Positions 16,209 through 54,417 of a stretch of DNA of 64,000 nucleotides are shown in pieces; within the stretch, counting starts at the first letter, position 1, and every line of letters begins with the position of its first letter. Position numbers and translations under genes: made by a program. The notes under the pieces were generated by a model. That model was not told the origin of the DNA, did not search any database, and saw nothing but the letters and a program-made list of their open reading frames with translations. Source of the DNA: Cinnamomum chago (Eukaryota; Streptophyta; Magnoliopsida; Laurales; Lauraceae); assembly GCA_038049695.1 (NCBI GenBank), contig CP142456.1, positions 67,731,922-67,795,921 of the forward strand, read 5' to 3'.

Positions 16209-16268
16209 TGCCTTGGCAGTTAGCTGCAGACTGCAGAGCAAATGGGATGAAAAGAGATCCTCTGCAGC

Positions 16269-16277
16269 TTATATGGG
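16269..16277 (-). promoter_or_regulatory. Putative TATA box of COMT-like copy 1
   Basis: Read on the minus strand, CCCATATAAG lies about 60 bp upstream of the ATG. That would place transcription start near 16240 and give a short leader. Confidence 0.5.
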
Positions 16278-31340: not shown

Positions 31341-32690
31341 AAAAAAAAAGAAAAAAATAAATAAAAGGAGCATAAATGTACCTGTGTAGGGTGACACAAG
31401 AGGCAATCTCAACGGGCACTTTGAAACCCTACTAATTGAGTTATGTGGAGTAAAGTTAATTTTATAGAAAAAATAAAAAATAAATAAATTATAATGTTAT
31501 TTTGCTTTTAGTTATTTATTATGAAATTTTTTTGACTTTTTGTATGGAAAATTAATTTTTTTTTTGTATTTTAATAGATAAAGGTAGTTGTTCTTTTACT
31601 TTTTATATCAAAAAGATTGGACCGGTAGATCAGCTATGTATCAAAATTGAATCAAAATTTTGATTGGTTACTTTTGGCTTTATAATATTATATATGAGAA
31701 TAGGAAGTCGAAAGAATATTGTTTATTTACGGAGATGGCCAATTACATAATTTCTTTTGTCTGAGGGGGCCCACCTGATGTCCTTCCATCTTCCACATTA
31801 CATATTTTAGGGCCGTTAACGAGTCGGATCCGGTTTCATACCGGGCATGAGTTCATTTACCATTGAGGAAGTAGAATCTAAATCCCCATCATAGTCTCCA
31901 TACGCTAGGATTTCAGTACTCCAACTTGGAAACGGAAGGACTCCATGTGTCTTCCATCTAAGACCATTACTCTAAGTATGAACTTTATAAAAAAAAAAAT
32001 AAACTACTAAAAAAATCTTCTTTCATTAGAGTGCTAGTAGTTTTTTAGTTCATGCAAGCAACCATCAAAATCACTATAGCAAACTATTAAAAATTAATGA
32101 AATTTCCTTACGGGCAGGTTGGGCTGAGCCTGGATGGGCCGAGCCTGTTCTGTCCATTCTCAGTCCCATTTTGACAGGGCTCGAAACTCATTGTCCAAGC
32201 CCAACCCGTTGGGTTCAAATTTTTTTTAAAAGTCTTGTATTATCGTGCTTATGACGGGCCGGGCCGGATTTCCATTTCGATGGGCTCAATTGACAGGTTT
32301 AGCCCCATGAGCTTTTTCATCAAAATTATTGTATCCAACAGTTAACACCGTTGCATATGATCACACATGCTCTCAGGGGACTTGTATTGTAAGACTAATT
32401 AACATCCAATATCCTCATGCCGAAAACAATTGATCTACGAGTGGAGTGGAGTGCGGTACATGCAGCCATGTTATATGGGGACTATTCGTATTTTCATCTT
32501 TTAATGTAGCATCAAGCTTATTGAACTTTCATTGTCGGCTGTATATTGACATAGTAATTTTTCAAAGGGAAGCTCTATACAGCGCCCCCACAAGTTTTGA
32601 AAAGAAAAACGCGATGTGAGTTTTATCGATGAGAAGAGAACGGACATTTATTGCATTGAATGGGCTGTCATATAAAAAAAAGTACAACAA
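31341..32690. other. Unassigned sequence with hAT-like GC patches
   Basis: Around 32110-32300 there are GGGCCGAGCC and GGGCCGGGCCGG words like the subterminal parts of hAT elements elsewhere in the window, but no ends or target duplication can be defined. Confidence 0.35.
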
Positions 32691-32699
32691 CAGTTTGCA

Positions 32700-33520
32700 C
32701 ATTGAGCGACGAAAATTTTTGTCGCCAAAAGCTAAAAAACGTCGGTAAACGCCTTTATCGACAAAACAAAGACGTGGACAAAAACTTTTACCGACAAAAT
32801 ATATTTCCCCAAAACTTATATTTTTACCGACGATTATCTGACTTTTACAGACGTTTTAAACGTCGGTAATTTTATTTTATTTTTCTAAATATTTAATATA
32901 AATTTTACCGACGTTTTTTTTCGTCAGCAAAAATAAAAAGAAAAATGAATAAAAAATAAATACTTTTGCCAACGTTTCTTTTCGTCGGCAAAAAGAAAAA
33001 TGAAAAATAATTAAAAAACTAAAATACTTTGGCCAACAGTTTTTTTTCTTCAGCAAAAAGAAATTTGAAAATTAAAAAATAAAATACTTTTTACCGACGT
33101 TTTTTTCGTCAGCAAAAAGAAAAAAGAAAATTAAAAAAATAAAATACGTTTTACAGACGTTTTTTGTTCGTCAGCAAAAATAAAAAATAAAAATAAAAAA
33201 ATATAATACTTTTTACCGACGTTTTGTTTTCGTCGGTAAAAAGAAAATAGAAAGATAAATAAAAAAATAAAGTACTTTTTCCGACGTTTGTTTTCATCGG
33301 TAAAACTAAAAAAAAAAATTAAAAAAATAAAATACTTTATACCGACATTTTTTTTTGTCGGCAAAAAAATAAATAAAAAATAAAGTACTTTTGCCGACGT
33401 TTATTTTCGCTGGTAAAAAGAAAAAATAAAATTAAAAAATAAAATACTTTTTATCGACGCTTTCTTTTCTTCCGAAAAAATAAAATACTATTACCGACGT
33501 AAAAACGTCGGTAAAGGTAT
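32700..33520. repeat. ~60-bp ACCGACG tandem array (left)
   Basis: About eleven units each contain CCGACG, a T run and CGTCGG (or a variant), separated by A/T-rich spacers. Unit starts near 32908, 32963, 33026, 33088, 33147, 33208, 33274, 33337, 33388, 33447 and 33490 give 43-66 bp spacing. This looks like the subterminal repeat region of a CACTA element. The same word recurs at 48350-48586. Confidence 0.8.
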
Positions 33521-33530
33521 TTTATTTTTT

Positions 33531-33938
33531 TAAAAAAAATATTATATTTGTTTTTTTCAATATAATTTTCCTATAAACCTGTTTGTACATATGTATCAAA
33601 AAATAAACATGTTCGTATACCTACATTCAATATAAAAAATGCATGCAAACAAAAGTTGGTAAATAAACAAACCATCGTCATTTTTCATCAAATCATTCAT
33701 CTCATTATACAAACATTATAATCAATAATGATACAGTCTCCAAACCATTGATAATTCCCTTAACAGCAGAAAATGTTGAGCCAGGAATCCAAAAGAGACC
33801 TATCCTCGTCTCAGCTTACAGTCCTTGCCAAGTACACATCAACTCAGCCTTACAAATATCCATCTCAGACAAACACAAGGTTGAACCATGCCTGGCGACA
33901 AGCTCTGTTTCCAAACTCTGTAGACATCATTTTCTCAA
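33531..33938. other. Unassigned sequence between array and MITE
   Basis: AT-rich then mixed sequence. Two short plus-strand frames near 33750-33970 overlap in different registers and share no known motif. Confidence 0.35.
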
Positions 33939-34469
33939 GGGCATGTTTGTGTAACACTTTTCCGCGGAAAAGTTGACGATTTTCCTCGGAAAGCCCATTT
34001 TTCCGGCGTTTGGTGCGGAACAATTCCGCGGAAATGCTTTCCTGCCTCGTCAGCATTTTCCTTGATAATTGTGGAAATGGATTTCCCATGGAGGTATGGG
34101 AAATGGTTTTCCTCGGAAAACTTCTCCCTCTTTTCCTCACTCTTGTCTATTTCAACCCAAAAACCCTATAACTTTTTCATTTTTTATTTCTTTATATAAA
34201 TTATTATTTAATGTTAAATCAATAATATACATGTTATGTTATTTTTCTTCAAAAAATTATATCACCAAATAAGAAATTTTGATTTTCTATAAGGAATCCA
34301 CAGTCGCACCAAACAACATCTGCACCAATTCAATGAGGAAACTCTTTTTACACCAAACATGAATTTCTAAATTCTACGGAAATCCTTTTCCGAGGTTTTC
34401 ATTTCTATGGAATTTGCTGACGTGGCAATTTCCTCTTTCCACGGAAAGGGTGTGTACACAAACGTGCCC
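33939..34469. mobile_element. PIF/Harbinger-type MITE, copy B (reverse orientation)
   Basis: 531 bp, same family as the copies at 23210 and 49401 but inverted. It starts GGGCATGTTTGTGTAACAC and ends TGTACACAAACGTGCCC. The flanking triplets (CAA, TAG) do not match, so the target duplication has decayed or the ends were rearranged. Confidence 0.85.
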
Positions 34470-35053
34470 TAGGACTCCAAACAATTCTCAGCCTACAGCC
34501 ATTTGTGCTGTCAAATCTGTCACGAAGACAAATCCATGTTAACAGAAAATAAACTCTATTTCTAGTATAAGGAATTAAACTAATCCCCTATTTCTCTAAT
34601 CCAATTTACAGTTCATTTGTAGAGCAAAGTCACTTGACTCAATATATAATAACTGGGTTGAATTTACTCGGATCAATAAATTTGAAAAAGTGGTCCAAAA
34701 GGCTCACCATTTCAGTGTAGCCACATGCCGTGTTGGTGTAGACTCCTCCTTTGTAGAACCGGAAACCTTCGACAACCTCAAATGCAACACTCACTGGACC
34801 AATACTGCCCACAGCGTTTTTCAGTTCATCTTCGTCACCCTATGCACAAACACCAAAACCAACAGCCAGAGTAATGTGAGTGGTGTTGAGCAAGTCTATC
34901 AACCCTGTGAGTATTGAAACGAGTGAAAGGACCAAAAGGGCTTTACCGGTGTAATGTTAACTGAGTCAAGGACCTTAATAGCTACTTCTTCAGGTTTTTA
35001 AACCTGCAGAATCCTTCCACTCCAGTATAAGGATATGATTCCTCATTGTCAAG

Positions 35054-35082
35054 GCCGCCATTGTACTTTATGTATTCAAATG
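35054..35082. repeat. 29-bp perfect direct repeat, left copy
   Basis: Identical to 38346-38374. It is part of the aleurain FEYIKYNGG coding segment (minus strand). The two copies bracket the BEACH-containing insert. Confidence 0.9.
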
Positions 35083-35099
35083 TCAAAACATTAACAGTT

Positions 35100-36070
35100 A
35101 GTTACAATACACAAAGATGTGCTTATAAAGTTATAATCATGAAATGCTGAATATGAAGGAAGAGAATGAGTGAATGAGATATTGAGTCACCATTAGGAAT
35201 TATATGGTCCTCAAGGATATGCATAATGCGTCGGTCTTAACTCTATACAAATAGTTCTCATGTCACAATCATCAAGAATACATATCTTGTGGGCCTTACT
35301 GTGGATGTATCATTGTTTGTCAGTTCTACTTAACTACAACCATTTGTAGCCATGTTTTCAGCAACTACATAACCCATTGCCTCTTTGCTCACTACTTCAA
35401 TTAAGGTCTTAACTGGCCTTCCTGTTTAGTTCCTTAAACATGGAATCCTTCATTATAGACATCTTAGAGGAGCTATCAGGTCTGCTATGGTTAAGACAAC
35501 TTAACTGAGACTGACAGCATCAAGTATACAGTTGCAAAAGAACTACAGCACAAGTCCACAACAAAAAATTGTCAACTTTTTATCATGAGGTTTTCCAAAC
35601 CCTTTGGAGTTGGTTCAAGATATCGTCTAACGACATTGAGGCATAAAGAGATGAATTGCTCAACCAACCAAAAAGAGGGTAGCAAACTCTAGCTCGATGA
35701 TACTAGGGTCGAGACAAGGATTGTACAATTCCTCCATGAAATGGTTCCCAAAGAACTTGATTACTGAAAAAAATAAAAAAGTGATATGCCAACTTTAACA
35801 ACCACGAGCACTCCAATTAAAACATGAACATTACAAGAGCACATCTTCCGAATAGAGAGCAAAACTAATTTAGATACAGTTCAAGTGCAAAGCAATGAAA
35901 TCAATAAGAGAGTTATAAGGGTAAACAGGTGTATGCAACATACCACTAGTTCCATGATAAATGTCCTCCACATGTCAATCAAACATTACAGAATAAAAAT
36001 GACCTTGCTTTTTTAAGGAAAAAGACCACAGAAAAGATATTATGATGAGCAAAATAAAAGAATTACTCAC
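35100..36070. other. Unassigned part of the 3.3-kb insert
   Basis: A minus-strand stretch near 35660-35760 reads IKFFGNHFMEELYNPCLDPS after a CAG acceptor-like site and may be another captured exon. I do not recognise its family. The rest shows no signal. Confidence 0.3.
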
Positions 36071-36096
36071 GCTCAGTGACAAGAGTAGTTAAGCAC

Positions 36097-37843
36097 TGAA
36101 CCTCTTGGGTTAGCACTGAGGTATTTTTGTATTTGCAATTTGATGGATGCTTTTTCACTTTAGCATCATTTGAATTTTCACACTTGCATTGTTTTAGAAA
36201 ACCTTGAAATCTGGTTTTATACATGCATTGCTTTTAAGATTTGAAAAAGTTTTGTTTTATGCATGTTTTATTTTTATACTTGGATGCATTGATTTTAGAA
36301 TTCAAACTCTTTTGAAAACCTAATTCTTTGTGCATTACTTTTGAGAAATCATATTGAGAATTTAGGTTTGTGCCTTGCATACATTCATCACTTTCAGAAT
36401 CATTTTTGTATGCATTTTTATGTGAAAAGAGTTTTATCAAATCAAGCTAGCCTTTGGTTTTAAAGTTTCAAATCATTTTAGGCTTTTTGTGTTTCATGTT
36501 TTTAAACATCTTCGTTTGATTTAAAACATGTTTCCAAGCTTGGTTTAGTGGCCCAAAAATCCCCACAAAGAGAAACCTTCAAATATGCAAAAGTTGGGAA
36601 TTTTTGTCCCAGGCGGTGGTCCGGCAGTGTCGCCGGTCGACCGGCCCAGAGGTCCCAGTCGACCGGGAACACTGCAGGCCATCTGGGCCCCTGGAGCCCC
36701 AACGGTCATTTTTCTGACCGTTGTGTGATCTCGGTCGGCCGAGACCTGTTTGCAGGTCGACCGAGGACTAGCCGTTGGACTGTTTTCTAGTATAAAGTCC
36801 ATTCATTTCCAACCTTTTTCAAGGCTTGAACCATGAACCTTTGAGACCATTTTGGAGCCAAAGAAAGGGGAAGAAGTTGGAAAGGCTAAAGGGCTATTTG
36901 GAAATCAAATGCTTGAGTTTTAAAAAGGTAGATCTTTACTTGTATTTTGATTTCCATTAAAATGAAATCCATGCATGCTTAAATATTTGTATTTTCACTT
37001 ATGCATGATTTCTAGAGTTGTGTTGTAAACTCAATATCATCTTTGGTAAATTAGTTTGGTTTGCAAACTATCTTATCCTAATCACATGTGTTCTTAGACT
37101 TTAACATTCATACAACTTGTTTGTTTCATTTCTTCAAAGTTGTTTGAATCTTTTATGTGATTAGTTTTCTCTTCAATCATCATTTTATAAGCTTTGATTT
37201 TAAAATGCATCATGCATTCATTTAAGAGCTTCATTGTTGAATTTGATTGAAGAAAAGCATTCATACACTTGTGCACACACTTTAGCTTGTTTTAGTGTAT
37301 GCTTGTAATTTGTTTTACACTTTCATATGAGCCTATTTAGAGGCAATACAATTGTGCTTAAATTGTATTTCTTAGAGTGATCTTTTGTGAAGATACCATC
37401 TTAGAGAAATCTTTATTTGTAAATGTTATTGCTTAGCCTAAGAAAAGCATTGTGTAAAGGTTATTGCTTAGCCTAAGAAAAGCATCTTGTAAAGGTTATT
37501 GCTTAGCCTATAAAAGCACATTGAGAGGTTGTTGTTTAGCCTAGAAAAACAACATTGTAAGGGTTATTGCTTAGCCTAGTAAAAAGCATAAATAGTGGAA
37601 ATCCGGTGGGGTGATTGGATCACAAGCCGGTAGTGGACGTAGGCATTGAGGCCGAACCACTATAAACCTTTGTGTTGTGGTGTATGCTTGTGGTGATTCA
37701 TTATTAGCTTCCGCATATTGTTTGATTAATCATCACATGTGACTAGTTTATGTTAAGAAGTTAAAATTTGTTTAAATTGGTCATAATTGTAGCTCACCAT
37801 ATTCCCCCCCCCCCCTCTCGGGTTAGGATCCCAAGGACTTTCA
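36097..37843 (+). mobile_element. Solo LTR of a Ty1-copia element
   Basis: Starts TGAACCTCTTGGG, ends GGACTTTCA, flanked by the exact 5-bp target duplication AGCAC (36092-36096, 37844-37848). Near the 3' end the phrase CTCACCATATTCCCCC and the polyC/CTCTCGG block are typical of plant copia LTR ends. It contains paired GGTCGACCG-type words (36630-36775), TATAAAG at about 36793, and a short array of TTATTGCTTAGCCTA (37425-37580). Confidence 0.88.
37425..37585. repeat. ~37-bp tandem array in the solo LTR
   Basis: TTATTGCTTAGCCTA followed by AGAAAAGCAT-like sequence recurs about five times between 37425 and 37590, with small length changes. Confidence 0.8.
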
Positions 37844-38345
37844 AGCACAAGAATAATTTCAGCAGGATGTCCAGCAGAGCAGCCTACAAGTACATCCTCA
37901 AAATCTGATGCATACTCTGCACTAGATGTAGTCTCTGGTAACTGGACAGGTTCCCAGTTCTTATATACACACAGGAAATGCATAAGAAAGACTTGCAATA
38001 ATCTTCTCTTTTCCACCTGTGAATTATCAACCAAAGAAATTCATATTTTGAGAAATTATTGCAAGAAAGACTATCATAGGTTCCAACCAACCCATAACCC
38101 CATACATGACTTACACGATTCAACTCCTATGAGTTCCTAATTAAACCCCAGGTCAGAAAACTATGCTTGAATGCTTCTAGGGCTGTTCTGGATCCTTTAA
38201 AGAACTAGGATGTCTCAAAACCAAAGATTTGTACTAAGTACTAATTGACATGTAAAAGGTCCACACTCCTGTCACCCCATCATTACAGTCATACTTTATA
38301 AAAAATCAACAATCAACCGAAGTTGTTGAAATGCTTGGGGTGACA

Positions 38346-38374
38346 GCCGCCATTGTACTTTATGTATTCAAATG
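38346..38374. repeat. 29-bp perfect direct repeat, right copy
   Basis: Identical to 35054-35082. To its right the aleurain exon continues towards its N-terminal side (CSGGLPSQ). Confidence 0.9.
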
Positions 38375-38404
38375 CTTGGGAAGGCAGTCCCCCAGAGCAC
38401 ATCT

Positions 38405-39999
38405 CAACCACTTGTCATTACCATTAAAAGAGAGATGAAAAACACAAGCAACAAACAATACAAACCTTGTGGTCCCCTTCACCAACAAACTTGGATCAGA
38501 ATCCATTGGTCATTCCGCCAATGGATGTTGCGAACAAAGGGGCTGAAGCTGTCAAGGAGTACTGGTTCGAGTGCCGAACTCAACCAAATAACAAAAATTC
38601 TAGTTCTACGATAACTTGTAGCACAAGGCGATGAACCGAGTCGTTTCTTGAGGATCAAAGTACCAATTAAACCAAATTACAGTAAAACAAAAGGGGGGGG
38701 GGGAGGATTATGTATGCAGAATATAAATGCAAGAAATAAATGTAAGAAAAAATATCAAATTGTAAAGCAACCAATCCAAGAAACTGTCAGAAATCAAGTT
38801 GGCTTTTCATCGAACACTTAACATGCATCTGGATTGAATTAATTGGTTAAGCTATGATTGACTAAAATCTCTGCATCAAATACAAAGAATTCTTTACTAG
38901 ACAATCACATAGAATTTAACTAACAAACGATTCATAAACCTGCAATCGCTAGATCCATACAACCTATGCTAGTTTAACACCCAGGATTCAATTAACCTAG
39001 ATTAGCAAATCTGCCAACCTAACCCTCTTCAATTCATATGACTAAACCACAATTAATCAATCACAATCTAATCACAAATCTCAATTAAGAATAAGGATCC
39101 AATCAGATCACATCACACAACAGAAATCTCTAATCATGCAATTCGAAATCCCAATCATTAGAAGAAGGAAACAATTAATTCAATTCAGAATCAAAATTGG
39201 ATACAGAATCTCAAAGCTAAAACAAAATTTCCTCCAGATCCTTGGATTGGTCTGGAATGTTTAGCCCTCCATGGCTACAGTACTTGGGTTGCAAAAACAA
39301 GAGAAACAAAAGAAAAACCTATCCACAAGAATGTATATCCCGTTTTCCCCTTTTTTCCTCCTCTTTATACAAAACCAACCGACTATAAGAAGTTTTGTTG
39401 TGAGTATTCCCCTTTTGCCCCTAAGTTAAAGTTAACCCTCGGCCTCTTAGCTTTCTTTGGCCACTGAAATCACCTGATTTGGGCTTAAAATGAGAGAGTT
39501 ATGCCCAAATCACTCTCAATGGGCCTCTGGACTCGTTGGCCGACTGCACAGGGGTAGAACACCATCAAAACATTGTATTTCCAATTGGTAGTCTTCATAA
39601 GAGTTTGAGCCCCTTTTGTGTAAGTTCCAACGGGACTGGTTTCAGCTCCAAAAGACCTCTACAGCCCAAGTTATGGACCAATCAGTGAATGCTGCTCGGG
39701 TTCCAGCAACAGAACCCTTGTTCTGACTTCCAAGCCCAATCCGGCCCACTAGAAATCTGATTCAGCTCTGGGACTCTTCATGAAAGTTGTAGATCTCTCT
39801 CTTATCTTTCCTGCAAGGCAAGATACATAATTTTCAGATATCTAGAGCTCAAGATATGGCTGAAATACAAAAACAGTGTAAAATCCTAATAATGCTGGAA
39901 AAATCAATTAAGCCCAATTTGAGCCCAAACTTACAAAACATGGCCAAGCTCAAACAATTAAGTACATGGAGAGTGTAAAGGACTAAAAATGAAGGTTTA
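38405..39999. repeat. LTR-like sequence, unclassified (probably antisense)
   Basis: Phrases such as GAACCGAGTCGTTTCTTGAG (about 38632) and the GAGCTCAAGATATGGCTGAA segment (39846) resemble plant LTR interiors. A G11 run lies at 38691-38703. No coding frame or clear ends are seen. Confidence 0.35.
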
Positions 40000-41237
40000 T
40001 TAATGTATGAAATCTGTGATTATCAAGTACATAGCAAAGAGGGGGCTGGACATTTTAGTGGCAGAAGAAGATAGAAGTATGCTCGAAGCAAATGACTAAT
40101 CTCAAACTGGTTGGTGGTCACGCAGCACCTCGTGGTTGAATAATTGGGTGTCGACAGTTTCTGAGAGTGTGTCAGGATACATGGGAACAGGGGCCAAAGC
40201 TCATAGAGACCCATTTCTAGATCAGCAGTTATGATTTCTTGATCCTGATTTTCCCAGTATATCCTTTGGCTTTCTTTTCATGTATATAATGCTGACTAGA
40301 AAACCAACCACATTATGAGTCTTCCCTCAGAGTACTTTTGAGAATTAAATGTATATTCTTGGGGGATAAAATTTGTGCGATTCATTAAACAACATTGCAA
40401 CCATAAACTCAAGCACCACTGTGAATCCCTGGACCAAAATTTGGTGTCCAGTGTAGCCACAGATAACTCCACATTCAATTTTCTCACAAAATGAACAGTG
40501 CCATGCAATGCAATAAAATATACATCTGTGATCTCTACACCTCCACATTGACATAAGCAATATACGAATGTAACTCACCTGTTTCAAATTTTTTTGGGAT
40601 TTTAGAAGAATTGCCTATGCTGCCTCTGTGGCCTGTTTGCTTGGACTGAACCTTATGAACGGAGTTGTAAATTTTTTTGTTGAAAAAAGTACTGAGCATT
40701 TATCATTAACCCACTTTTGATCAGCCAGGCTATTACCTATTATTAGTGAGAAAAAAAAAAGAAAAAAAAAAAAAAGAATTGGTCAGAGTTCAACATTAGC
40801 CATTATGGAGATGCATAAAAATTTATGTGGCCTGTTTCCTAATTATTTGGGGATGACAGATGCGCTGAACATGATAGAAAATTCAGATGTATGTTTTTGA
40901 CTCACAACTAGAACACAAGATTCAGATGAGAGACGCTTTGTACCTAACTGTCGGTATATTTTTTGACGCCATTTTGTGAACATCAAATGTAGGAATTATT
41001 AGTGAAGGTATAGACTATAAATTATCAAATATCTTATACTTATGGTGCATTATAACATACCTTCTCATCATTGAAGTCATACAATTCAGCATCTGCAGAA
41101 CACACCAGATGATCATGACAAAAAAAAGAGTAAAGTCAAAATCTTCAACTCAGTGTTCTAACAAGCCACAAACACAAAAGACCACCACATAGCTCCCAAT
41201 AGAGATGCTTACTTTTTTGCTCAGCCAATCTGCCTTG
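40000..41237. other. Unassigned region with one possible captured mini-exon
   Basis: On the minus strand, 36 bp at about 41067-41102 read DAELYDFNDEK between a CAG acceptor and a GTATGT donor. I do not recognise the protein. An A-rich run lies at 40750-40777. The rest shows no support for a gene. Confidence 0.3.
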
Positions 41238-43148
41238 TTGAAAAAGGATGAGTATCAAATTTACAGGTCTAAAAGGAAGTCGTTGTGAGCTGAGAGTGCC
41301 AGTAGCCAGTGACACATGCCTCTCTTTTGGATGGTGGTATTTGCAGGTTGATCCATATTTGCAACTGCCAGTGATCATGTAATAATGACACTCTGGTCGG
41401 TCTGATCTCTCAGGGAAATGTTAGACAGAAGTTAACAGCGATCCACTACGAACAGGGTCACCAAGATGCTTGGAGTAAGGATGAAAATAGCGGCAACGCC
41501 CACCGCCAAACCGCTACGAAGCGGGTGATACATAGCGTAATGGGGATACGTAGCAGCGTAGCGATGCGATTTGAAAAAATCGCCAAAAAAATCTGAATTT
41601 TTTTTAGAAAATCCAAAAAATTGTAAAATGAAAGAAAATGTGATTCTTTTCCAAAACTAAGTAACAAAAGGGGGCGTAGCGGCACCCTTAATAGATGAGG
41701 TCCTGTATCGCTATATAAATAGAAAATAATAATGAGTATTTTTTTCACATGTATTCATGTTTCTAGTACTGCTAACTTAGAAAGTAATGAAAAGATCATA
41801 AATATTTTTCTGTTAAAAATTAAATTTGATTAGAGCCTATTTCCTATTAAAATGAAAAGGGCTCATTTTCTATTAAGGTGTACTTTGGTCAAGGCCTTAT
41901 GTTAGTATTTCCTATTAAATTTGGCTAAAACCTATTTCCAATTAATGTGAAACTTGGCTGGAGCCCATTTCTAGTTAGTGTTAAAGTTTACTATGGCCCT
42001 ATTTTCAATTAGAGTGAAATTTTATTGGGTTGTATTTCTAATTAAAGAGAAACTTGGCTAAGGCTCTAATTTCAATTAAGTTGTATTTTGTTAAGACATG
42101 CCCTTTTTATTTAATACTTGGGCATCAATGTGGAGCCCATCAAAGGTTAAGAAGACTAACAACTTTTGAGGGGCTATTTATATTTTATCTAAACCTTTTA
42201 TAAGGTGGGCTACTATGGGGGCCATAAATCCCTTAACTAAATCAGATGGAAGGGCCCTGCCCGCTGCCCAGTGCACTATTTCATGTGAAATGAAGGATCG
42301 AGAGATAACGGGAGAAGGGGGAAAGGAAAAGGAGGGAAAAGAAAAGAAAAGAAAAGTAGGGAAAGGAAAGGAAGAAGAAGAAGAAGGAAGAGGAGCTCCT
42401 GCCGTTGCTGCCTTCGCCTGCTGTTGTTGCTGTTGCTGGCTTGCTGCCGCCACCACCACCTGGTATGTTCTCTCTCTCTCTCTATCTCTCTTCCTGTTTT
42501 CCTCTTCTTCTTCTTCTTTTTTTTCCTTTCCTTTCTTCTTCCTTTACTGTTCACTGTCTTTATTTTCCCCCTTTCCTCCTGTTTTCCTCTTCTTTTTTTC
42601 CTTTCCTTTTTTCTTCCTTTACTGTTTACTGTAGCGGCGCCATAGTAACGTGGCGGCCTGTATCGGTCGCTACGAATGCATAGCGGCCGATACGGGCCGC
42701 TACGGTTGCGATACCCAATTTTTCCCAAATAGCGTGGTGGCCACTGCCGCCACGGCCGATATATCAGCCGCTACATAGATTTTCATCCATGGCTTGGAGT
42801 AGTATACAAGATTAGTTGAAAAAGGATGAGTATCAAATTTACCGGTCTAAGAGGAAGTCCTTGTGAGCTGAGAGTGCCAGTAGCCAGTGGCACATGCCTC
42901 TCTTTTGGATGGTGGCATTTACAGGTTGATCCATATTTGCAACTGCCAGTGATCATGTAATAACGACACTCTGGCCGGTCTGATCTCTCAGGGAAATGCT
43001 GGACAGAAGTTAACAGCGACCCACTAGGAACAGGATCACCAAGATGCTTGGAGTAGTATACAAGATTAGTTGTAATTGTATCAAATGAGGAGCCAGGGCT
43101 TAAAGCACTCTGATCGGTGGTGAAACATGGCTCGGATACATGTAACAA
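41238..43148 (-). pseudogene. CCCH zinc-finger protein (ZFN-like) exon, partly duplicated and interrupted
   Basis: The fuller copy (42843-43148) reads [18 protein letters not shown] then [19 protein letters not shown] and SSQGLPLRP. This is the C-x8-C-x5-C-x3-H finger and linker of plant ZFN-type RNA/DNA-binding proteins, and it ends at donor GTAAAT. A 254-bp tandem duplicate of the end of this exon lies at 41238-41477 plus 42802-42815, and a Mutator-like element is inserted in it. No other fingers are found nearby. With the intact copy alone the exon would be usable, but no neighbouring exons can be joined, so I call a fragment. Confidence 0.75.
41478..42791. mobile_element. Mutator-like non-autonomous element, 1.3 kb
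   Basis: Flanked by the 10-bp direct repeat GCTTGGAGTA (41468-41477, 42792-42801), fitting a 9-11 bp MULE target duplication. Ends are AGGATGAAAATAGCGG and, inverted, CATGGATGAAAATCTATG. Subterminal TAGCGGC / GCCGCTA words abound. The interior has (CAG)n-like, polypyrimidine and CT microsatellite sequence (42340-42640) that makes long but low-complexity open frames on both strands. No transposase. Confidence 0.8.
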
Positions 43149-43149
43149 G

Positions 43150-45036
43150 TGAAATAATACAGCGTGTCATGTGAAATGTAAATTTAAGATTGTACAGCAA
43201 AAGATTAACAATGTGATGCAAGCAAAAGGGTCAGAACAAGCTCTAGTTGCTATCTTTTTCACACTTACAAAATAGTCCAAAAACCATGAAACTAACATTG
43301 AATTGAATACCCAGCAGATAACAATATATTTCATAAGGTAAAACTTCTACAAAACGTACCCACAATCCTCCAACACACAATGATTACTTTAGCAGGTTCG
43401 CAAGAATTCTAGTTCTAGTAACTATTGATGTAATCTTGATTCTTCATGTTCCCTCGCACTTCAGGAAATTCAAACTCTGTGATTCCCCTCTCTTTGGTAA
43501 TGTTCTTAAAACTTTTTGCAGGCATAGCTTAATTGGCCAATGATTTTAAGTTTTTGTTTGCTACATTGTTTCTTGGTCATCTTAACTAATAGGGGTGTGG
43601 ACCTTATTGCATCTTTTTGCAACAAGTATCAAACGTCAGACGATGAATTGAAGAAGACAATGGAGAAAGCTAACAATATAATTGTTTACATTTTGAAGAA
43701 AAAACCACAATTGGCCTCTGATTGTAAATCAGAGAACCTAGATAATATCAATACATGTATATTTTAATGAACGATGGATGTAAAAAAAAAAAGGTAGCAA
43801 CTCACGGTACCAACAATATTCACTAGTTCGTTGGAATACATTCATGGAGTTATAGGACTGATTTTTATTATTATTATTATTATTATTATTGGTGTTTGTA
43901 CCTAAGGAGTAGATCTTTCCATCATTCCCCTCACCAATTTTCTTACCTATGTTATGCCAAGTGTGATGCTTTAACAGATCAGCATCCATTATGTCCAACA
44001 TAAAGTATACTTAAAAAGTAAATAACATCAATATACCCTAAAAGGATATTTTTATTAATCTGGGCTTGGTAGTAAACTCTAACCTTGATTAAAATGTAAT
44101 GATGGAATTTAGATGGGATGACTAGGCCTGTACTCCAAACAGGCAGATTCAGACCTCAATAGGCCCCTGTCCAAGCCGGACATAGGCTCGAACTCCTCAA
44201 TTGTGAAGGAAGTTGGTCGGGCTTCAACATAATATGTGAAATTGGTACATTCTATTCCTAGCCTCTCTCTCAACTTATGGCAAAAAGGGGCTTTTTTATT
44301 TTTGAAACATAAGCTGCTACTGGAAAGTGAGCTCTACTTGTAGAGAGTATAGTTGCTAGAAGAAGCCATATAAATTGTTAGTTAATGATAGTGTTAAGCG
44401 TGCTGCCCTGAGGCCTGAACACAATCTTAGATATATAGAATCCGCTTTGCGAACACACATGGTCGAGTGGTGGTTTCTATCACATACATGCCCAGCTCAC
44501 CGAGTCCTACCCGAGTACAACCTGTATAACCTAGAGCTGACTAGATCAACCTGAATTTCAGCAATCCTGGTGATGATCTGATGATTAAAAAGAAAAATAA
44601 ATCATACATAAAAAAACAGGCCAAATCATTATCCAATCCAATATCAAAATCAGTATTCTCAAATCGTGTTCCCTAAATCAATACCCATATCACATTGTAG
44701 CCATCCAACCATGAGGTTTGACAATATGCAGAGTAATAAGAATTGGCAGAAATGGTCAGAAAGGAGTTTCTACTCCAACAACTAACTAGGCCAAGATCTT
44801 ATGTCCTACTATCCATTTAACATTGGTCTCTCTCTCTCTCTCTCTCTAAAACGTTAGATCTCAATAATAATGATGATGATAACATCACTTCAAAAAATTC
44901 AGAGCTTGAATGTTGTTTCATTGCTCTGATGAGACTAAACAGATTTTTATGTTTAACATTCTCAAAGGCTTTACATTACATTGCATAGGAATAGGATATA
45001 CAGAAAACTTACTTAAAAATCCTATTTACTTTGCAG
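43150..45036. other. Unassigned sequence with microsatellites
   Basis: Contains (TTA)n at 43866-43890 and (CT)n at 44828-44847. A small plus-strand frame at 43540-43767 is not recognisable. No MATE N-terminal exon is found here. Confidence 0.4.
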
Positions 45037-45786
45037 GGCCGGTGATACCAACAATTTTATTATGGTACCCATCTTAAAGATCCGGATTCACTGCATTGCT
45101 TCACCTCTTCATAAGTTGGGTTCTTGCATTTAAATCTGGACCGGGCAACAAAGGTGCTGCCTTGGCCAACTCCATCTCTTATTGGATCAATGTGGTTTTG
45201 TTGGCCTTTTATGTCAAGTTCTCTCCTGCCTGCAAGAAGACTTGGACTGGTTTTTCAAAGGAGGCCTTACATGATGTCTTCAACTTCATAAGACTTGCCA
45301 TTCCTTCAGCAGTTATGGTTTGGTGAGTTGTAGTATTCCTGCTTTCAAAGCCGTTCCATTGGAAAGATCATGGTTTTCTTTTCCTTCTTCCACTCCACTT
45401 ACTGTCTTTGAAAGTTGAGGTATTTTTGTTTTTATTCTGCTTTGAAAAACTATATGCATGGCATTTGTTTTGGTATTCCATTCATACACCTAATCTTGTT
45501 TGAGCTTCGGTATATTGTCACATTTCTAATTTGAATTTTCAATATATATTTTAGTAAGTGTATTGTTTGAATGACTTGAGACAGCTTGGAATTTTGGTCA
45601 TTTGAGCTCCTAGTTCTCTTGTCTGGCCTCCTTCCCAATTCAAAGCTTGTAACATCGGTTCTATCAATCAGGTTGGCATTCCCTCTAACTCTTTAGATTT
45701 TCTTGGAATTTATAGATCGCACTTGGTTTACTAAAATGTTAATATGCATTTACCAGCTAATGTGTCACAAACAGTAGTCATACCAT

Positions 45787-45973
45787 CAGGGGCGGACCCA
45801 AATACAATCATGTGGGTGCGGTCGCACCCGTTAAACCGCGTGCGCTTTAAAATTTTCACAAAAAATTACAAGTCCACCCTCAAAATCCACATGAAAATCT
45901 TCGATTTGGCACTTAACCCAAACTACCTATTAAGGTCCGCACCCATCAAACTAAAATCTTGGGTCCGCCACTA
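45787..45973. mobile_element. hAT-type MITE, 187 bp, in a MATE intron
   Basis: Ends CAGGGGCGGACCCAA and TTGGGTCCGCCACTA are inverted repeats. The 8-bp target duplication CATACCAT is exact (45779-45786, 45974-45981). Confidence 0.92.
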
Positions 45974-46614
45974 CATACCATAATATTGTGCATATAAATG
46001 TTCACCGTATACAGTCCATGCATATGCACATCTATTTTTGGCATTGCTTTCTCCACCTCCATTTCTTACTGACATAAGATAATAAAGCTTTTAGAAGCTG
46101 TATCATTTAATTTCCACATGTTTTAAAGGGCATACGGAGTTAGTTATGGCTATTGACAATTCAGATCATTCACAATAATTCATACATGATTCTAATATTC
46201 GGTCTAACTATTCATAATCTATGCAGCCTTAACACATGCTCGATTCTATTTATGATCCCATTTGGTCTTGGCGGTGCAGTAAGGTCAGTTCAGCTAGATG
46301 TCAATGTTTTCTCTCCATGTTCTTCTCCATACCTTTATAGCATGCCCTGTTTCACTTTTCAGTACAAGGGTGTCAAATGAATTGGGTGTTGGGCGTCCAC
46401 AAACTGCGCGCTTAGCAGTCATGGTTGTGGTAGTTGTGGATGTTACAGTGGGCGTGATAGTTGGGTTGACCATGATTTTAGTGCGTGGAATCTGGGGCTA
46501 CGCATATAGCAATGAGGGGGGGGAAGTGGTGAGATATGTGGCAGTCATGATGCCAGTTCTTGCAACCTCTAACTTCTTGGATGGAATCCAATGTGTGCTC
46601 TCAGGTCTGAACTA

Positions 46615-47066
46615 CTTTTTTTTTTTTATTATCAATAACGATAAATTATAGTAAATTATATTATAAGAGAAAGCAAGATACAAGAAGCCCACCAAACAAA
46701 AGAAAAGAAAAGAAGCACAATGGTATAAAAGAATTATACCATGAAAAGGATAAGGAAAAAATAAAGAAACGTCACACAGTGAAAGCCACCAAATTAGAAG
46801 ACTTATCCACCCCTTGCTTAGCTAACGATTCAGCAAAACCATTTGCCGACCAGCATTAACAGCATGGGAACAATAGCATTATTTTTCATGAACTAGTCAT
46901 CAAATTGCCTCCTTATTATGCCATTAGCTCAGTTGGCTTAGGCCTTCCCTTAGGCTCCAGCTTTTGCAAGTAGCTTTTAATCATCTTTGCTCATTTATAT
47001 GAAGATTGTTTTGAGTTAAATTGAATAATGGATTACATCATCTTAATGGGTTTCTTCAAAATTTAG
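46615..47066. other. Insert-like AT-rich intron sequence
   Basis: This MATE intron begins with a T13 run and contains A-rich sequence and a CATTAGCTCAGTTGG phrase (about 46921) resembling a tRNA A box. There is no matching B box or cloverleaf. Confidence 0.3.
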
Positions 47067-47639
47067 GCATTGCAAGAGGGTGTGGTTGGCAGAAGATTGG
47101 CGCATATGTTAATCTGGCAGCTTATTACATTGTGGGCATTCCTTCTGCTGTTCTTTTAGCTTTTGTCCTCCATTTTGGAGGAAAGGTGGGTGTTCTCATC
47201 CTTTTTGTCGAATGCCTATGATATTTAGATTGTTGGAATGAAAGATGATGTTTGTGCTTGTTCTCAAAATTGTTGCAAACAGGGGCTTTGGATGGGGATT
47301 GTATGTGGGCTTATGGCACAAGTGCTAATGCTTTCAACGATAACATTATGCACTAACTGGGAGCAAGAAGTAAGTGATGGCCTCCCATTTCAGTGATTGA
47401 TTTATTTTATTTTTTTCTCTAGAAGAATTTTTAGCGGAGCTAGCTAAGATAATGAGTAGGATTGAATGTGGATCAGGCTGGGGCCTGTCCAAGCCCAACT
47501 AACAAATTGAGTACATCCAAGCTGGTAAAATAAGGTAAACAGTAACTAGTTTAATGCATGCATCTCACTCCAATCTGGCATAAAAATAAAAAAAAAGCAA
47601 TAAAGACCGTGACAATTAAAGGCATCCATTGATGCTCAT

Positions 47640-48339
47640 TTTACAAGAAACATGTAATCTGAGAAGGGGGAAATACCTGAGTTTTCAAGGCAGCAAGTTT
47701 TTTCTTCATCTTTTCCTCCTCTTCTTCGTTCCCTTCCTTCGTTTTATGTTGCCTGGAAAGCGAGAGAGAGAGAGAGAGAGAGTCAAGAGAGTTCACTTGC
47801 TCGCCAAAGAGGTTGTAGGAGAAGGTCTGAAACACTTTTGATTTGGGGGTTTTCGAATGGAGAGGGTTTTCGATGATGGGATGGACGATGGTTCAAGAGA
47901 GACGAGGGTAAGGGTTGGAGATTTGGGGGTTTTCGAATGGAGAGGAATTTTAGTCGGATCGGCTGAGAGAGTGGGAGTGATGTGCCAGCGCAAGGGTTGC
48001 AGGGGATGGAAAGGACGGCGAGATGATGGAGAGGGCCAGAGAGATGAAGGGTTGTAGCTAGGGGAGAGACAGTGAGAGAGTGAGAGAGAAGAGATGGGGA
48101 GGGCTGCGCAAGGGAGAGAGAAGAGATGGGGAGGGCTGTGCAGGGGAAATGAAGGGTTACAAGGGGGAGACGGTGAGAGAGAAGAGATGGGGGAGGGCTG
48201 CGCAGGGGAGAGATGAGCGAGAGAATGAGAGAGCAAGAGAGAGAGAAGATCGAGAGAAAGAGCAGAGAGATCGATCTAGAGAGAGCGGAGAGAGAGAGAG
48301 GATAAATTAAAGAGGGAATTTGGTGGCGGGAGAGGGAAA
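47640..48339. repeat. GA-rich tract with a possible minus-strand exon
   Basis: 47770-48300 is dominated by GAGAGA and GGGGAGGG words, partly as a ~50-bp duplication around GAAGAGATGGGGAGGGCTG. On the minus strand about 47675-47755 reads GNEEEEEKMKKKLAALKTQ between AG and GT sites. That may be a charged coiled-coil exon fragment, not identifiable. Confidence 0.4.
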
Positions 48340-48586
48340 AAAGTAGTGGGAAAAAAAGGTCTTTACCGACCTTTTAAAATAAACTTCGGTAAAAAAAATT
48401 CCGACGCTAATTTTCATCGGTAAAAAAATGAATTCGTCGGTAAATGTCTCTGATTTTAAATTTTCTTAAAAATTAAATTAAATTTTACCAACGTTTTACA
48501 AGAAACGTCGCTAAAATAAAATTGAACTTTACCGACGATTTTACCGACATTTTGTAATTCGTCGGTATTTTTGTAGGGAAAATCAA
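48340..48586. repeat. ACCGACG repeat region (right) with possible CACTA end
   Basis: Carries the same TTTACCGACG / CGTCGGTAAA words as the left array and stops at CGGTATTTTTGTAGGG. Read in reverse this begins CCCTACAAAAATACCGACG, one base away from a canonical CACTA terminus. Confidence 0.6.
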
Positions 48587-48589
48587 TTT

Positions 48590-49400
48590 CTTAGGACCCG
48601 CGGAAGTGATAAATCAATTGAAGAATTAAAGAAGGAAAACCAAGGTATTGAAGCTCTGCATGAGGTCCACACTACTGCAGTTGGAAGATTCAATTCAAGC
48701 CAAACAAAGAAGAAAACAAAAATGCAAAAGAAAATCCAGCCATATGAAGGACATCCAAGGTAAGGGAATTTCAAGCATTGCACACAGAAGTGGGGCCCAT
48801 CATGTGTTCCAATTGATAATACAAATCTGAGTTTCATATTAGGAATTAGATGTAATTTGAGCAATTTCTTAATAGAAGAAGTGGGCCTAAATTTGGATAG
48901 ATTCAAGCAAATTTCAGAGTCCTAAATAGAGAGGGTAGTAACCCAGAAGTGGCAAGATAAATTCAAATCCAAAGAGTCCAGGTTTTCTTAAGAACTCTAC
49001 GAGTTGGATTTTCAGTCAAGATATATTTTCAAATATTTGGAAACTTTTGCAAGCCAAGAAGCTATCCAAAGGAGATATCACACGTCCTTTGCCTTCCCAA
49101 GCTTCTCCATTCCAAGTTGGACGTCCAAGCCATGATTGAAGATAAAATTTAAGATTCAAATTTTGAATCTTGAATCAAGAAAGAAAATAAAACAACGTAA
49201 ACAAAAATCCAAAAAAGGCTTTACACGTCTAAAGCCATGAAGGTTCAAGATGATACACTCCAAGTGGGGTCCAAATGCATTCAAATTAGAATTGCATCAG
49301 AAACCGGCACGAGCACTTCACTCGAGGGTAGAGTAAATTGTAGGAACTGACGGTTCGCAAATAGGATTAGAAGCAAAAACATCGGATTTTCCAACACTTA
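48590..49400. other. Unassigned sequence
   Basis: No open frame over 110 codons and no motif recognised. The phrase ACGAGCACTTC at about 49309 recurs at 50000, on the other side of the MITE at 49401-49935. Confidence 0.35.
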
Positions 49401-49935
49401 GGGCACGTTTGTGTACATACCCTTTTCGTGGAAAGAGGAAATTGCCACGTCAGCAAAATCCATAGAAATAAAAACATCGGAAAATGATTTTCGTAGAATT
49501 TAGAAATTCATGTTTGGTGCAATAAGAGTTTCCTCATTGAATTGGTGCAGACGTTGTTTGGTGCGGCTGTGGATTCCTTATAGAAAATCAAAATTTCTTA
49601 TTTGGTAATATAATTTTTTGAAAAAAAATAACATAACATGTATATTATTTATTTAACATTAAATAATAATTTATATAAAGAAATAAGAAATGAAAGAGTT
49701 ATGAGGTTTTTGGGTTGAAATGGATAAGAGTGAGGAAAAGATGGAGAAGTTTTCCGAGGAAAACCATTTCCCATACCCCCCCCCATGTGAAACTCATTTC
49801 CACAATTATCAAGGAAAATGCTGACGAGGCAGGAAAGTATTTCCGCGGAATTGTTCCGCACCAAATGCCGGAAAAATGAGTTTTCCACGGAAAACCGTCC
49901 ACTTTTTCGTAAAAAAGTGTTACACAAACATGCCC
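49401..49935. mobile_element. PIF/Harbinger-type MITE, copy C
   Basis: 535 bp, ends GGGCACGTTTGTGTAC and AAACATGCCC, TTA target duplication on both sides. It sits about 80 bp left of the second COMT block. Confidence 0.9.
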
Positions 49936-50150
49936 TTAGGCTCGAAAACGGCCAGCCGAGGGCCCGGAACGGAAAACGGCCCCCGAAAAAATCAGAAACT
50001 AGTACGAGCACTTCGCAAGTCATACACCAACCTAATCTGGGTCCTGAACTTTTAGGCACCCACAAATACAATCAGAAAGAACAAAGGCACAAGAGATAAG
50101 ATCGATTATACCCACAGAAACACCAAAATCAAAGACCCAACAAAACAGAA

Positions 50151-51731: not shown

Positions 51732-54417
51732 TCACTTCTTCTTGTTGCATTCCATGACCCAAGAGCCATAAGCACAGCACTCAAGATTCAAGCTTGCAAA
51801 GCCAGCTCCTTTTACCAACTCCTCTAATTGTTTCTCAGTTCTTTCCTTTCCTCCAGGGTTATAAGCTAACATAAGCATGTCATGCTGGAAGACATATTTC
51901 GCAGTGAGATTGGTCTCAGGGGCTACCGGGATGATCGACTCAACGATAATCATCTTTCCAGAGTCCGGAAGGGCTTTGTAACAATTCTTCAAAAGTTTCA
52001 AGCAGTGCTCATCGCTCCAATCATGAAGTATCCACTGCAATTTCGAACACCTTGTTAAATTCTAATAAAAGAGTATAAAACCCAAAAAGATGATGAAGCC
52101 CCCTTCGGGAGGAGATAAGTAGATTAATTAATCAAGAGTTGTTTAACTACATGATGGGAATTGCACACTTTCTTGGAAAAGGAAGGTTTTGTTATAGCAA
52201 TTTCGAATTCCTTGAGACATTTTCTTGGGAGTTGAATGACTAAAAGCTTTCTCTTCCACGTGACTATCTACTTCAGTGGTTTCTCCACAAAAATATTTTT
52301 TGCTTACACCTCTTAAATTAGAGGCATGCGACAAGTCTTTCTCAAAATAAAATTCCTAAATAGAGTGTAGATTAGTGGCCAAGTGGGCTTTTCTTCGTTC
52401 CGTTGACCATAAATCTAATTACAAAACGAGAGCAGCTGATGCCACAACACAATCTTCTCTTTCCGCATTCCTTTTTTTTTATTTTTTATGACCGATATAT
52501 CTTTATATAAAATTAAGTAAAAGGACATCTACAAAAGTCTCTTCCTCCCCGACTTCTTTCTGCAATCAACCACGCGGACCCCCACCCCAACCTGAAGCCT
52601 CGCCGCTGCCAGCAACCCCTCCGGTACTAGCACCGCTGGAGGGGGAGAGGGACAAAAACAGGGAGAGGGCAGCCGGTAGGGCGACAGGTGGAGGGTGGCG
52701 GGTAGGGATAGGGAAAGAGCTGAAGGGAGATAGAGGGAGACAAGGAGACGGAGAGCGAGAGATAGGTTGGCGGGCAGGGTAGGGCAGGGAGAGGAGAGGG
52801 AGGGAGGGAGAGGCAAGGAGGAGTTGAAGAGAGCGTGGCGGGCAGTGGCAGGAGAGGGAGAAAGTATGGAAGAAGGGGAATGAACTGATAAAATGAGGGT
52901 GGAGGGGTTTGAGTATTTTGGGAACTAGTGTGTGAAGAAAGAAAATTTGAGATTTTCTTAACTTAAGTGGGGTGTGTAGAGAGAAGGCATGTGGAAAGCG
53001 GAGCTTTGGTTGTAGCATTAGCAACTCCCTTACAAAATAGCTATGTTTACTCTTTCTTTTTTAAGTTTTTGTTAAAACAACAGCTATATTTACTTGAAAC
53101 CGGTTTTGGAAACGTAAAAACTATTGTGATTTACTTGCAACTTGTGGTGTACATGTCCAGACACATGAATTGTCATTTATGTGTAAAATTGGTCTTATAG
53201 ATCGAATAAAAGTAAAGATGTCAATTTGCATATTTATTGAGGTCAACGTCCACCATCGCTCCTGAACGATCATAATTGTGGTCGAGCCTTTGCCCTCACT
53301 ATAAAACTATTGTTCTGCTGTTTTCAATCACTAATTGTTTTGGGGTAAGTGGTAGCTCAATGGGGTGTAAGATTCTAAAAGTGGTAGCTCAATGGGGTGT
53401 AAGATCCTAAAAGTGGTATCAGAGCCTCGTAAATTGGGCGTTCGAGTCCCATGACATGCATTTTGTGAATTGCAGTTATCGTCGTCGTCATCATCATCAA
53501 AGCCTTGTCTCAACTTGGATCCGCTACATGAATTCAACTTCTCCATCCCGATTTAAGATATAATGCTGAGGCAAGAGCATGTTTGGCATAGTTTTCACAC
53601 AAGCCCAAATGAATATCAATCTCAGTAGATGTATTTTTCCGCCCAATGAAAAATGAGTTGGGCCGAGACAGTAACAATCTCAGGCTTATGGATAACCAGA
53701 TGTTTCTTGGGCTAAATGAACTCATCCCCAACAACCCAATTTGAAACACTGTATGGCTGTCCACCTTGGGCTATGCTTAAAACTACTGAGGTGATAAAAG
53801 AGATGAAAGGGCCCATTGCAGTGGGAAATTTAAACTATTTCCCATTGCAGTGGGTCCTCCAGACACTCATGTGATGTGTATTATGAATATGATTTCCACA
53901 CAGTTGCAAATAATTAGTTCCAAGAAACAAGATTAGTAACCAGATTGAGCTCTCACCTTCATGAAAATGACTTCACCACTTGGGACACTCACAAACATAT
54001 CTCCCCCAACATGCTCCACACCTGGTAAAGTTTGATTATAAGGAAAGGGTTAAACAATATTTCTAATATAGATTAGAAGGAAATGAGTACAGGATCACAA
54101 TCCTACCATCAAGTGCAGGTGCTCCAGCGACAACGTGTGGCAGATCGTAATTAATACCCTTAATATGTGGGTACCTAGAGATGATCGCATTAAGTGTAGC
54201 TCCAACCCCACCACCCACATCAACCACCACCTTAAGTCCTTCAAAGCCCTTGTATGTCTCTAGGATCTTCTTCATGACGATGGTAGTGGGATTCAACATA
54301 CCCTTATTGAAAACATTGTTGAACCTGGGGTCTGTGGCAGGGTACTCGAAGGCATTCATACCATAGGCTTTGTCGAATGGAACTCCACCTTCAAGAACTG
54401 CATCTTTCAAATAATAC
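51732..54417 (-). CDS. COMT-like: COMT-family O-methyltransferase, copy 2, exons 2-4 (partial)
   Basis: Exons complement(51732..52034, 53957..54021, 54107..54417) match copy 1 exactly in length, phase and splice sites and encode residues 142-367 without stops. SAM motif [13 protein letters not shown] and both catalytic glutamates are kept. Replacements relative to copy 1 include H185P, E205V, L301I, L318H, V352E and Y364N. Position 318 corresponds, from memory, to a substrate-pocket isoleucine of alfalfa COMT. Exon 1 is not found up to 64000, so intron 1 would exceed 9.5 kb, or the gene lost its 5' end in the duplication. It could be a functional paralogue or a headless copy. Confidence 0.8.
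53344..53555 (+). repeat. tRNA-derived SINE-like unit (copy 2) with duplicated A-box segment
   Basis: GTGGTAGCTCAATGGGGTG occurs twice in tandem (53350 and 53381), followed by TGGTATCAGAGC and the B-box-like GTTCGAGTCCC near 53440. Better matched to tRNA promoter boxes than copy 1. Confidence 0.45.

What the first reader, a model, noticed from the sequence alone, without database searches (positions are those of the whole stretch)
32700..48586. 16-kb mosaic of four broken genes between matching CACTA-type repeat arrays
Exon-intron pieces of an aleurain-like protease, a BEACH protein, a CCCH zinc-finger protein (all minus) and a MATE transporter (plus) sit between two blocks of the same ACCGACG subterminal repeat. 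The right block ends TTTTTGTAGGG, close to a CACTA terminus. Seen: the repeats and the gene pieces with correct exon borders. Known: CACTA elements can capture several gene fragments. Inferred: one giant Pack-type element. If right, it would be unusually large and would carry four unrelated genes.
Basis: partly seen in the sequence, partly recalled or inferred. Interest (0 to 1): 0.78.

Follow-up and report, generated by a model that had tools for sequence, protein, structure and literature searches.

The report
Truncated CACTA carrying captured gene fragments
This stretch of a plant chromosome is an old, broken copy of a cut-and-paste jumping gene (a CACTA transposon) that has picked up pieces of several unrelated plant genes; the kind is known, but this copy and its relatives show how pieces were added and lost one after another.

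Summary
The genome (1.06 Gb, 14 contigs) holds many relatives. One (C9:18.30 Mb) is a complete 12.7-kb element with CACTACAACAAA/TTGTAGTG ends and an AAT target duplication. The window's left block is that family's left end, with CACTA decayed to AAGTA at 32680. The right block is not a terminus: in seven relatives the sequence runs on through TTTTTGTAGGG, and in the complete one the right end lies about 1.6 kb past where the window copy stops. The block is a truncated internal relic of a right end. The window copy stops at 50012-50016, where a copy of window 262-20223 begins; its right terminus is missing. About 5.8 kb of the 17.3 kb is six nested insertions, so it is not giant. MATE traces to a gene cluster with unbroken MATE exons, aleurain to a candidate gene pair; the CCCH domain is confirmed, the BEACH label is not. 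Pieces recur together, in window order, at 25 other loci (0.4 expected at random); among places scored, only the window has all six. Steps of capture and loss are visible. New member of a known kind.

The parts
32680..33737 (+). Left end of the CACTA element: decayed terminus AAGTACAACAACAG... at 32680, subterminal ACCGACG/CGTCGGT array to about 33540, then about 200 bp of family-specific inner sequence
   Evidence: 69.5% over 548 bp to C9_18 7644-8172, whose terminus is CACTACAACAAACTGCA; 33485-33735 is 83% identical, inverted, to the right side of that relative; terminus alignment with three relatives
33940..34468 (.). Nested MITE 1 (529 bp); an inverted copy is MITE 2; no clean target duplication seen
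   Evidence: 92% to 49399-49937; borders
34543..35082 (-). Aleurain-like papain protease fragment (introns kept)
   Evidence: Pfam Peptidase_C1; 96% to C11:53585901-53586438 and 80% to C11:53597778-53598334, both matches ending at 35082
35083..38345 (-).
   Evidence: 29-bp aleurain repeat on both sides (35054-35082 and 38346-38374); pieces collinear at C7:35.898, C12:35.626, C10:44.127, C3:98.357 Mb
36117..37843 (.). Nested LTR-type insertion (TG...CA, TSD AGCAC, 1727 bp)
   Evidence: Empty site in relatives L043 and L047; start set from the alignment, which replaces the 36097
38346..38394 (-). Second part of the aleurain exon; its first 29 bp repeat 35054-35082
   Evidence: 100% to C11:53585881-53585929, adjoining the first part on C11
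38563..40025 (.). Nested solo LTR (1463 bp, TG...CA, TSD AGTAC)
   Evidence: 23 near-full rows at 87-98%, six pairs of them 9.2-9.6 kb apart; TSD
40301..43792 (-). Module with CCCH zinc-finger gene piece (exons in 42786-43166; tandem copy at 41237-41477)
   Evidence: zf-CCCH; collinear at C3:72521834-72524422 minus; tandem duplication
41479..42789 (.). Nested MULE-like insertion (GGATGAAAAT TIRs, 9-10 bp TSD GCTTGGAGTA)
   Evidence: Borders; its place is closed at C3:72.52 Mb by hit coordinates
44241..45076 (.). Further piece of unknown identity, ending exactly at the MATE junction
   Evidence: 89% to C5:4972380-4973264, match ends at 45076
45077..47498 (+). MATE transporter gene fragment, introns kept
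   Evidence: MatE; 94-97% to a tandem cluster at C10:62.84-62.91 Mb whose exon is open across the capture point; both junctions read at base level
45787..45973 (.). Nested hAT-like MITE (187 bp, TSD CATACCAT)
   Evidence: Missing from source loci and relatives; copies elsewhere
47499..49400 (+).
   Evidence: 87-90.5% to seven relatives running through 48578; L045 and L046 carry the same array out to CACTA-type right termini
49401..49934 (.). Nested MITE 2 (534 bp)
   Evidence: Missing in the C8 and C9_18 relatives
49935..50016 (+). Last element sequence; the right 1.6 kb with the true terminus is missing. Similarity to the duplicated segment starts at 50013, so the join lies in 50012-50016
   Evidence: Matches C9_18 18637-18718, whose terminus is at 20327; from 50013 on the sequence is a copy of window 262 onward

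Best explanation
Window 32680 to 50012-50016 is a dead, right-truncated member of a multicopy, Pack-type CACTA transposon family. Shown: the family has CACTA ends, subterminal arrays and a 3-bp target duplication in one complete relative; it carries pieces of unrelated host genes with introns; different relatives carry different subsets of the pieces in the same order; other transposons are nested in this copy; its right terminus is gone. Inferred: members were moved by a transposase supplied from elsewhere and gained pieces in steps, by joining of neighbouring elements (leaving the truncated internal right-end array) and by insertion of filler DNA during break repair (the segment set into the aleurain piece between 29-bp repeats). 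Loss of the right end, with or after the segmental duplication, left this copy unable to move by itself.
For: Complete relative with AAT duplication; left-end homology; right module continuing past 48578 in seven of seven relatives compared; true right termini on the same array in L045 and L046, 2 of 3 loci fetched for that test; MATE source cluster with unbroken MatE exon and base-level junctions; candidate aleurain source pair on C11; 25 other loci with two or more modules in window order on one strand (strands), against 0.4 on average and 4 at most in 1000 random placements; empty site for the LTR insertion.
Against: The window copy has no right terminus and a decayed left one, so its own target duplication cannot be tested. 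Of six relatives read over about 30 kb, only C9_18 shows both ends with matching flanks; C7 has both ends but flanks cta/tca; C8, C9_72 and C10 show only a right end and C4 neither within the stretch read. The third locus of the right-end test, L044, has the internal junction, not a terminus. No relative was read from its left end into the aleurain piece, so that link rests on adjacency in the window. No transposase source was sought. The staged-capture mechanism is inferred from junctions.
Confidence: 0.87

Rival explanations
1. The window copy is a recombinant of two subfamilies: a left half (aleurain, unnamed segment, CCCH) joined to a right half (MATE, internal array), rather than an ancestor-like copy that once held everything. 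This is a variant of the best explanation, not an alternative to its CACTA nature.
For: In one search the aleurain-side pieces and MATE are together only in the window. CCCH is whole at the aleurain-side loci C3:72.52 and C6:13.14 Mb but in a deleted form at the MATE-side loci. The MATE left flank in the window differs from that of the C1, C4 and C7 copies.
Against: The window MATE piece starts within about 10 bp of the others and keeps slightly more of the gene, as an older state would. Searches scored at most 40 candidates each, so other full copies may be missed.
Confidence: 0.4
2. Two separate CACTA elements with host DNA between them, never moved as a unit.
For: The right block does derive from a right end, and elements with true termini on that array exist.
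Against: Left-end and right-block sequences lie in one element with an AAT duplication at C9:18.30 Mb; the pieces between recur together elsewhere.
Confidence: 0.06
3. Segmental duplication or scattered pseudogenes, with transposon repeats there by chance.
For: A real segmental duplication adjoins the element at 50013.
Against: The matches of that duplication cover 262-20223 and 50013-83128, not 32680-50012; pieces recur at dispersed loci on several contigs in one order.
Confidence: 0.03

Closest known systems
Tgm-Express1, soybean CACTA with five unrelated gene fragments in 5.7 kb (PMC1947982, abstract and section list seen)
   Same: CACTA element carrying exon-intron pieces of several unrelated host genes
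   Different: Tgm-Express1 sits in a known mutant gene and its pieces were seen in transcripts; the window copy lacks its right end and is full of nested insertions
Pack-CACTA elements (PMC8903248, passages and section 9 read; PMC13317346, passages)
   Same: Gene pieces from several loci; internal damaged end as in the neighbouring-element fusion model
   Different: Here arrays of about 60-bp and 172-bp repeats, and a 29-bp-flanked insertion inside an earlier captured piece
Tgmt*, 20.5-kb soybean CACTA (PMC2613891, passages)
   Same: CACTA ends, 3-bp duplication, subterminal repeats, similar total size
   Different: Tgmt* encodes a transposase; none was found in the eight frames of the complete relative that were scanned
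Chenopodium Jozin CACTA elements with captured gene pieces and satellite arrays (PMC8978399, passages)
   Same: Gene fragments and satellite-like arrays inside CACTA elements
   Different: There the satellite array lay near the 3' end; here a neighbouring family member (83127 onward) carries an array of a unit related to the family's subterminal spacer, on its left side

Membership tests
CACTA superfamily | Terminal inverted repeats starting CACTA | tested here: met
   Met for the family: CACTACAACAAACTGCA / TGCATTTTATTGTAGTG at C9_18 7643 and 20327. The window copy itself has AAGTACAACAA on the left and no right end.
CACTA superfamily | 3-bp target site duplication | tested here: met
   AAT/AAT at C9_18. 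Not testable in the window copy; the C7 relative does not match (cta/tca).
CACTA superfamily | Subterminal direct and inverted repeat arrays | tested here: met
   Arrays at both ends of C9_18 and at 32740-33540 in the window.
Pack-CACTA | Host gene fragments inside, with identifiable source genes | tested here: met
   MATE from the C10:62.84-62.91 Mb cluster, with an open 196-codon MatE exon across the capture point at both loci checked; aleurain from candidate loci at C11:53.586 and 53.598 Mb, not read themselves. CCCH source not separated from element copies; BEACH label unconfirmed.
Pack-CACTA | Multicopy element moving with the gene pieces | tested here: met
   25 other loci with two or more modules in window order.
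Pack-CACTA | No transposase of its own | tested here: inconclusive
   Eight reading frames of C9_18 scanned: an ABC transporter piece and a sub-threshold CCCH match, no transposase. Not all frames were scanned.
Pack-CACTA | Both ends present, so that this copy could move | tested here: not met
   Right terminus missing at 50012-50016, left CACTA decayed: a dead member of the family.
BEACH-domain gene piece | Similarity of 37843-38016 minus to a BEACH protein | tested here: inconclusive
   No Pfam or PDB match; genome searches for it unanswered.

The most novel reading that the evidence does not exclude
The family preserves the stages of multi-gene capture: a fossil right end left inside the element by fusion of neighbours, a filler segment set into an already captured gene piece between 29-bp repeats, and later loss of a captured gene leaving a scar of about 46 bp. 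If trees confirm the order, capture in CACTA elements would use both element fusion and templated break repair within one lineage, with the window copy as the only member scored here that holds all six modules.
Probability: 0.35. Interest if true: 0.55.

Novelty: new member of a known kind. Interest (0 to 1): 0.4.

Why it matters
How transposons pick up several host gene pieces is still being worked out. A family with many members holding different subsets of the same pieces, with source genes in the same genome, lets the order and junctions of capture be read directly. It also warns that such loci can be mistaken for genes or for single giant elements.

Tried and rejected
Right block as terminus: rejected, since seven of seven relatives continue through it. 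Left terminus CCCTACAAAAATACC: not present. Right end further along C6: not found up to window coordinate 94000 as part of this element; the CACTA end at 83127 is a second element in left-end orientation, inserted after cacataat, with window 20223 as its empty site. A second copy of the element on C6 from the duplication: none among the places scored for MATE and aleurain. L047 (C6:56.053 Mb) as source gene of the unnamed segment: rejected, it also holds the aleurain exon. BEACH identity: Pfam and PDB gave nothing. LTR start first placed at 36097, corrected to 36117.

Co-occurrence count: a first count on selected rows gave 23 loci of 71 clusters; the fuller one gave 29 of 94 clusters from 159 rows. 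From the 29 I set aside the window itself, the C11 gene pair and C7:31.145 Mb (both match two queries only because both queries hold aleurain sequence) and C1:107.01 Mb (two parts of one segment), leaving 25. Rows of the answers not entered: 6 second rows at loci already entered, 4 such rows, 9 rows of the nested MITE and 15 of an intron repeat, 2 second rows, all rows except the six of the 40301-41240 module (mostly the solo LTR; the two rows of the unnamed segment re-enter), 22 second rows. Three CCCH places were added. Counts are lower bounds because each search scored at most 40 candidates. The random control placed single positions per locus uniformly on one line and uses rounded module counts, so it is rough.
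Full report
The window is G000:C6:67731922-67795921 of a 1.06-Gb plant genome in 14 contigs. Its borders, its size and one gene label do not.

Observation. ACCGACG occurs 13 times in 64 kb (0.87 expected; 0 of 100 shuffles reached 13), 12 of them in the two blocks. Of ten frames sent to Pfam, Peptidase_C1 (one), zf-CCCH (two) and MatE (one) pass the curated cut-offs on the strands stated; a second Peptidase_C1 and a second MatE exon fall below them.

The family. A search with the right block gave 46 matches from 40 scored of 444 candidates. Six of these loci were fetched with about 30 kb each. At C9:18.30 Mb a complete element runs from 7643 to 20327 of the joined stretch, with CACTACAACAAACTGCA and TGCATTTTATTGTAGTG ends and AAT on both sides. 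Of eight of its frames sent to Pfam, one is an ABC transporter piece, one a sub-threshold CCCH match, none a transposase. Its left array matches window 32684-33178 at 69.5% over 548 bp; 33485-33735 matches its right side inverted at 83%; window 47451-49402 matches at 88%. Of the other five loci, C7 has both ends but non-matching flanks (cta/tca), C8, C9_72 and C10 show only a right end, and C4 neither within the stretch read.

Left end. Aligned with three left ends that keep CACTA, window 32680 reads AAGTACAACAACAGTTTGCACATTGAGCGACG where C9_18 reads CACTACAACAAACTGCACTTTTAGCGACG. This is a decayed CACTA terminus; the predicted CCCTACAAAAATACC does not exist on the left.

Right block. All seven relatives compared continue through TTTTTGTAGGG to about 49400 at 87-90.5% identity. 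Three further loci with weaker matches were read to see where the array ends. In two, L045 and L046, the same array runs on 329 and 200 bp past the CGGTA at which the window departs, to CACTA-type right termini (TTGTTGTAGTG and TTGTTGTATTG). The third, L044, has the window's internal junction. So in the window's family the block is the stump of a right end, cut after TTCGTCGGTA and joined to other DNA, with the working right end further out. Whether TTTTTGTAGGG is a mutated terminus or chance cannot be told. A damaged internal end is what the neighbouring-element fusion model predicts (PMC8903248 section 9; PMC13317346 passages; the original paper, Catoni 2019, is not held).

Where this copy ends. 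Family sequence stops at 50012-50016. From 50013 the window repeats its own 262-20223 in direct orientation (pieces at 93.7-98.1%, spread over 50013-83128 with insertions). By eye the join shares one to a few bases. The right 1.6 kb of the element, terminus included, is missing; no second MATE or aleurain copy on C6 was among the places scored. The simplest reading is loss of the right end by a break and rejoining at the duplication border; the order of events is open.

Nested insertions. Six total 5751 bp: LTR-type 36117-37843 (TSD AGCAC, empty site in L043 and L047), solo LTR 38563-40025 (TSD AGTAC), MITEs 33940-34468 (no clean TSD), 45787-45973 (TSD CATACCAT, missing from source loci and relatives) and 49401-49934 (missing from C8 and C9_18), and a MULE-like element 41479-42789. 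The element's own DNA is therefore about 11.6 kb of 17.3 kb, not giant: Tgmt* of soybean is 20.5 kb (PMC2613891 passages), and Tgm-Express1 holds five gene fragments in 5.7 kb (PMC1947982 abstract).

Gene pieces. MATE 45077-47498 matches a tandem cluster at C10:62.84-62.91 Mb at 94-97% (four copies) and 82-83% (two), introns included. At the two loci checked, L033 and L034, a 196-codon MatE exon is open across the point where the window piece begins (E 1.4e-26 and 1.7e-26), so these are good source genes. The right junction reads CCTAGCCCAA in the genes before CTAACAAATT in the elements; three relatives without MATE (C8, C9_18, C10) keep its last 46 bp or so, so they most likely lost it. Its left flank in the window differs from that in the C1, C4 and C7 copies, and matches C5:4.97 Mb at 89% up to exactly 45076. 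Aleurain 34543-35082 matches C11:53585901-53586438 at 96%, and 38346-38394 matches C11:53585881-53585929 at 100%. The two parts overlap by 29 bp on C11, so 35083-38345 appears to have been inserted into the captured piece with a 29-bp duplication; by hit coordinates the piece is uninterrupted at C7:31.145 Mb. The C11 loci were not themselves read.

Recurrence. Taking matches of the six modules within 30 kb of each other, 29 of 94 clusters hold two or more (159 rows). Setting aside the window, two clusters that arise from aleurain sequence alone and one that holds two parts of one segment, 25 remain; in all 25 the listed strands and positions agree with window order. Random placement gives 0.4 on average and at most 4 in 1000 trials (a rough control). 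Only the window has all six among the places scored. Aleurain-side pieces and MATE occur together nowhere else in that list, so the window copy is either nearest to an ancestor holding all pieces or a recombinant; the data do not decide.

Gaps. No relative was read from its left end into the aleurain piece. The genome search was mostly unavailable, so BEACH genes, the left-block copy set and a transposase source were not examined. On re-checking I lowered the count of loci from 26 to 25 and the confidence from 0.88 to 0.87, because most of the six relatives show only one end in the stretch read.

Verdict. A dead, right-truncated Pack-type CACTA element: a known kind, with unusually readable stages of capture.

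Noticed in passing
window 11768-14033: Complete 2.27-kb CACTA element with other ends (CACTACAAGAAATCTAGG...CTTGTAGTG), AAT on both sides and its empty site near 60238 in the duplicated segment.
   Followed up: yes
window 262-20223 and 50013-83128 (beyond the window in L028-L030): Direct segmental duplication (pieces at 93.7-98.1%) with several presence/absence differences (8925-10319, 60676-64264, 65632-76555, 76767-78947); by eye, from recall, it holds an O-methyltransferase-like exon at 51732-52040 minus.
   Followed up: partly
L028-L030, window coordinates 83127 to beyond 94000: A second element with the same kind of left end, in which a roughly 172-bp unit related to the family's subterminal spacer forms at least 9.7 kb of satellite-like array; reading frames with similar repeats appear in the C7 relative at 3439-4955.
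   Followed up: partly
C8_59108000 1073-1816 and 9450-10177 (L021): A roughly 9-kb insertion in the C8 relative bounded by inverted repeats of about 750 bp at 93%, missing from C9_18.
   Followed up: no
C7:38839110-38861238 (L009-L011): 22.1-kb relative with CACTA-type ends but non-matching 3-bp flanks, holding Copia-like reading frames (recognised by eye) at 9320-13557 of the joined stretch.
   Followed up: no
window -6187 to -5491 and -382 to 314 (L027): A further direct repeat of 697 bp at 90% next to the start of the segmental duplication.
   Followed up: no
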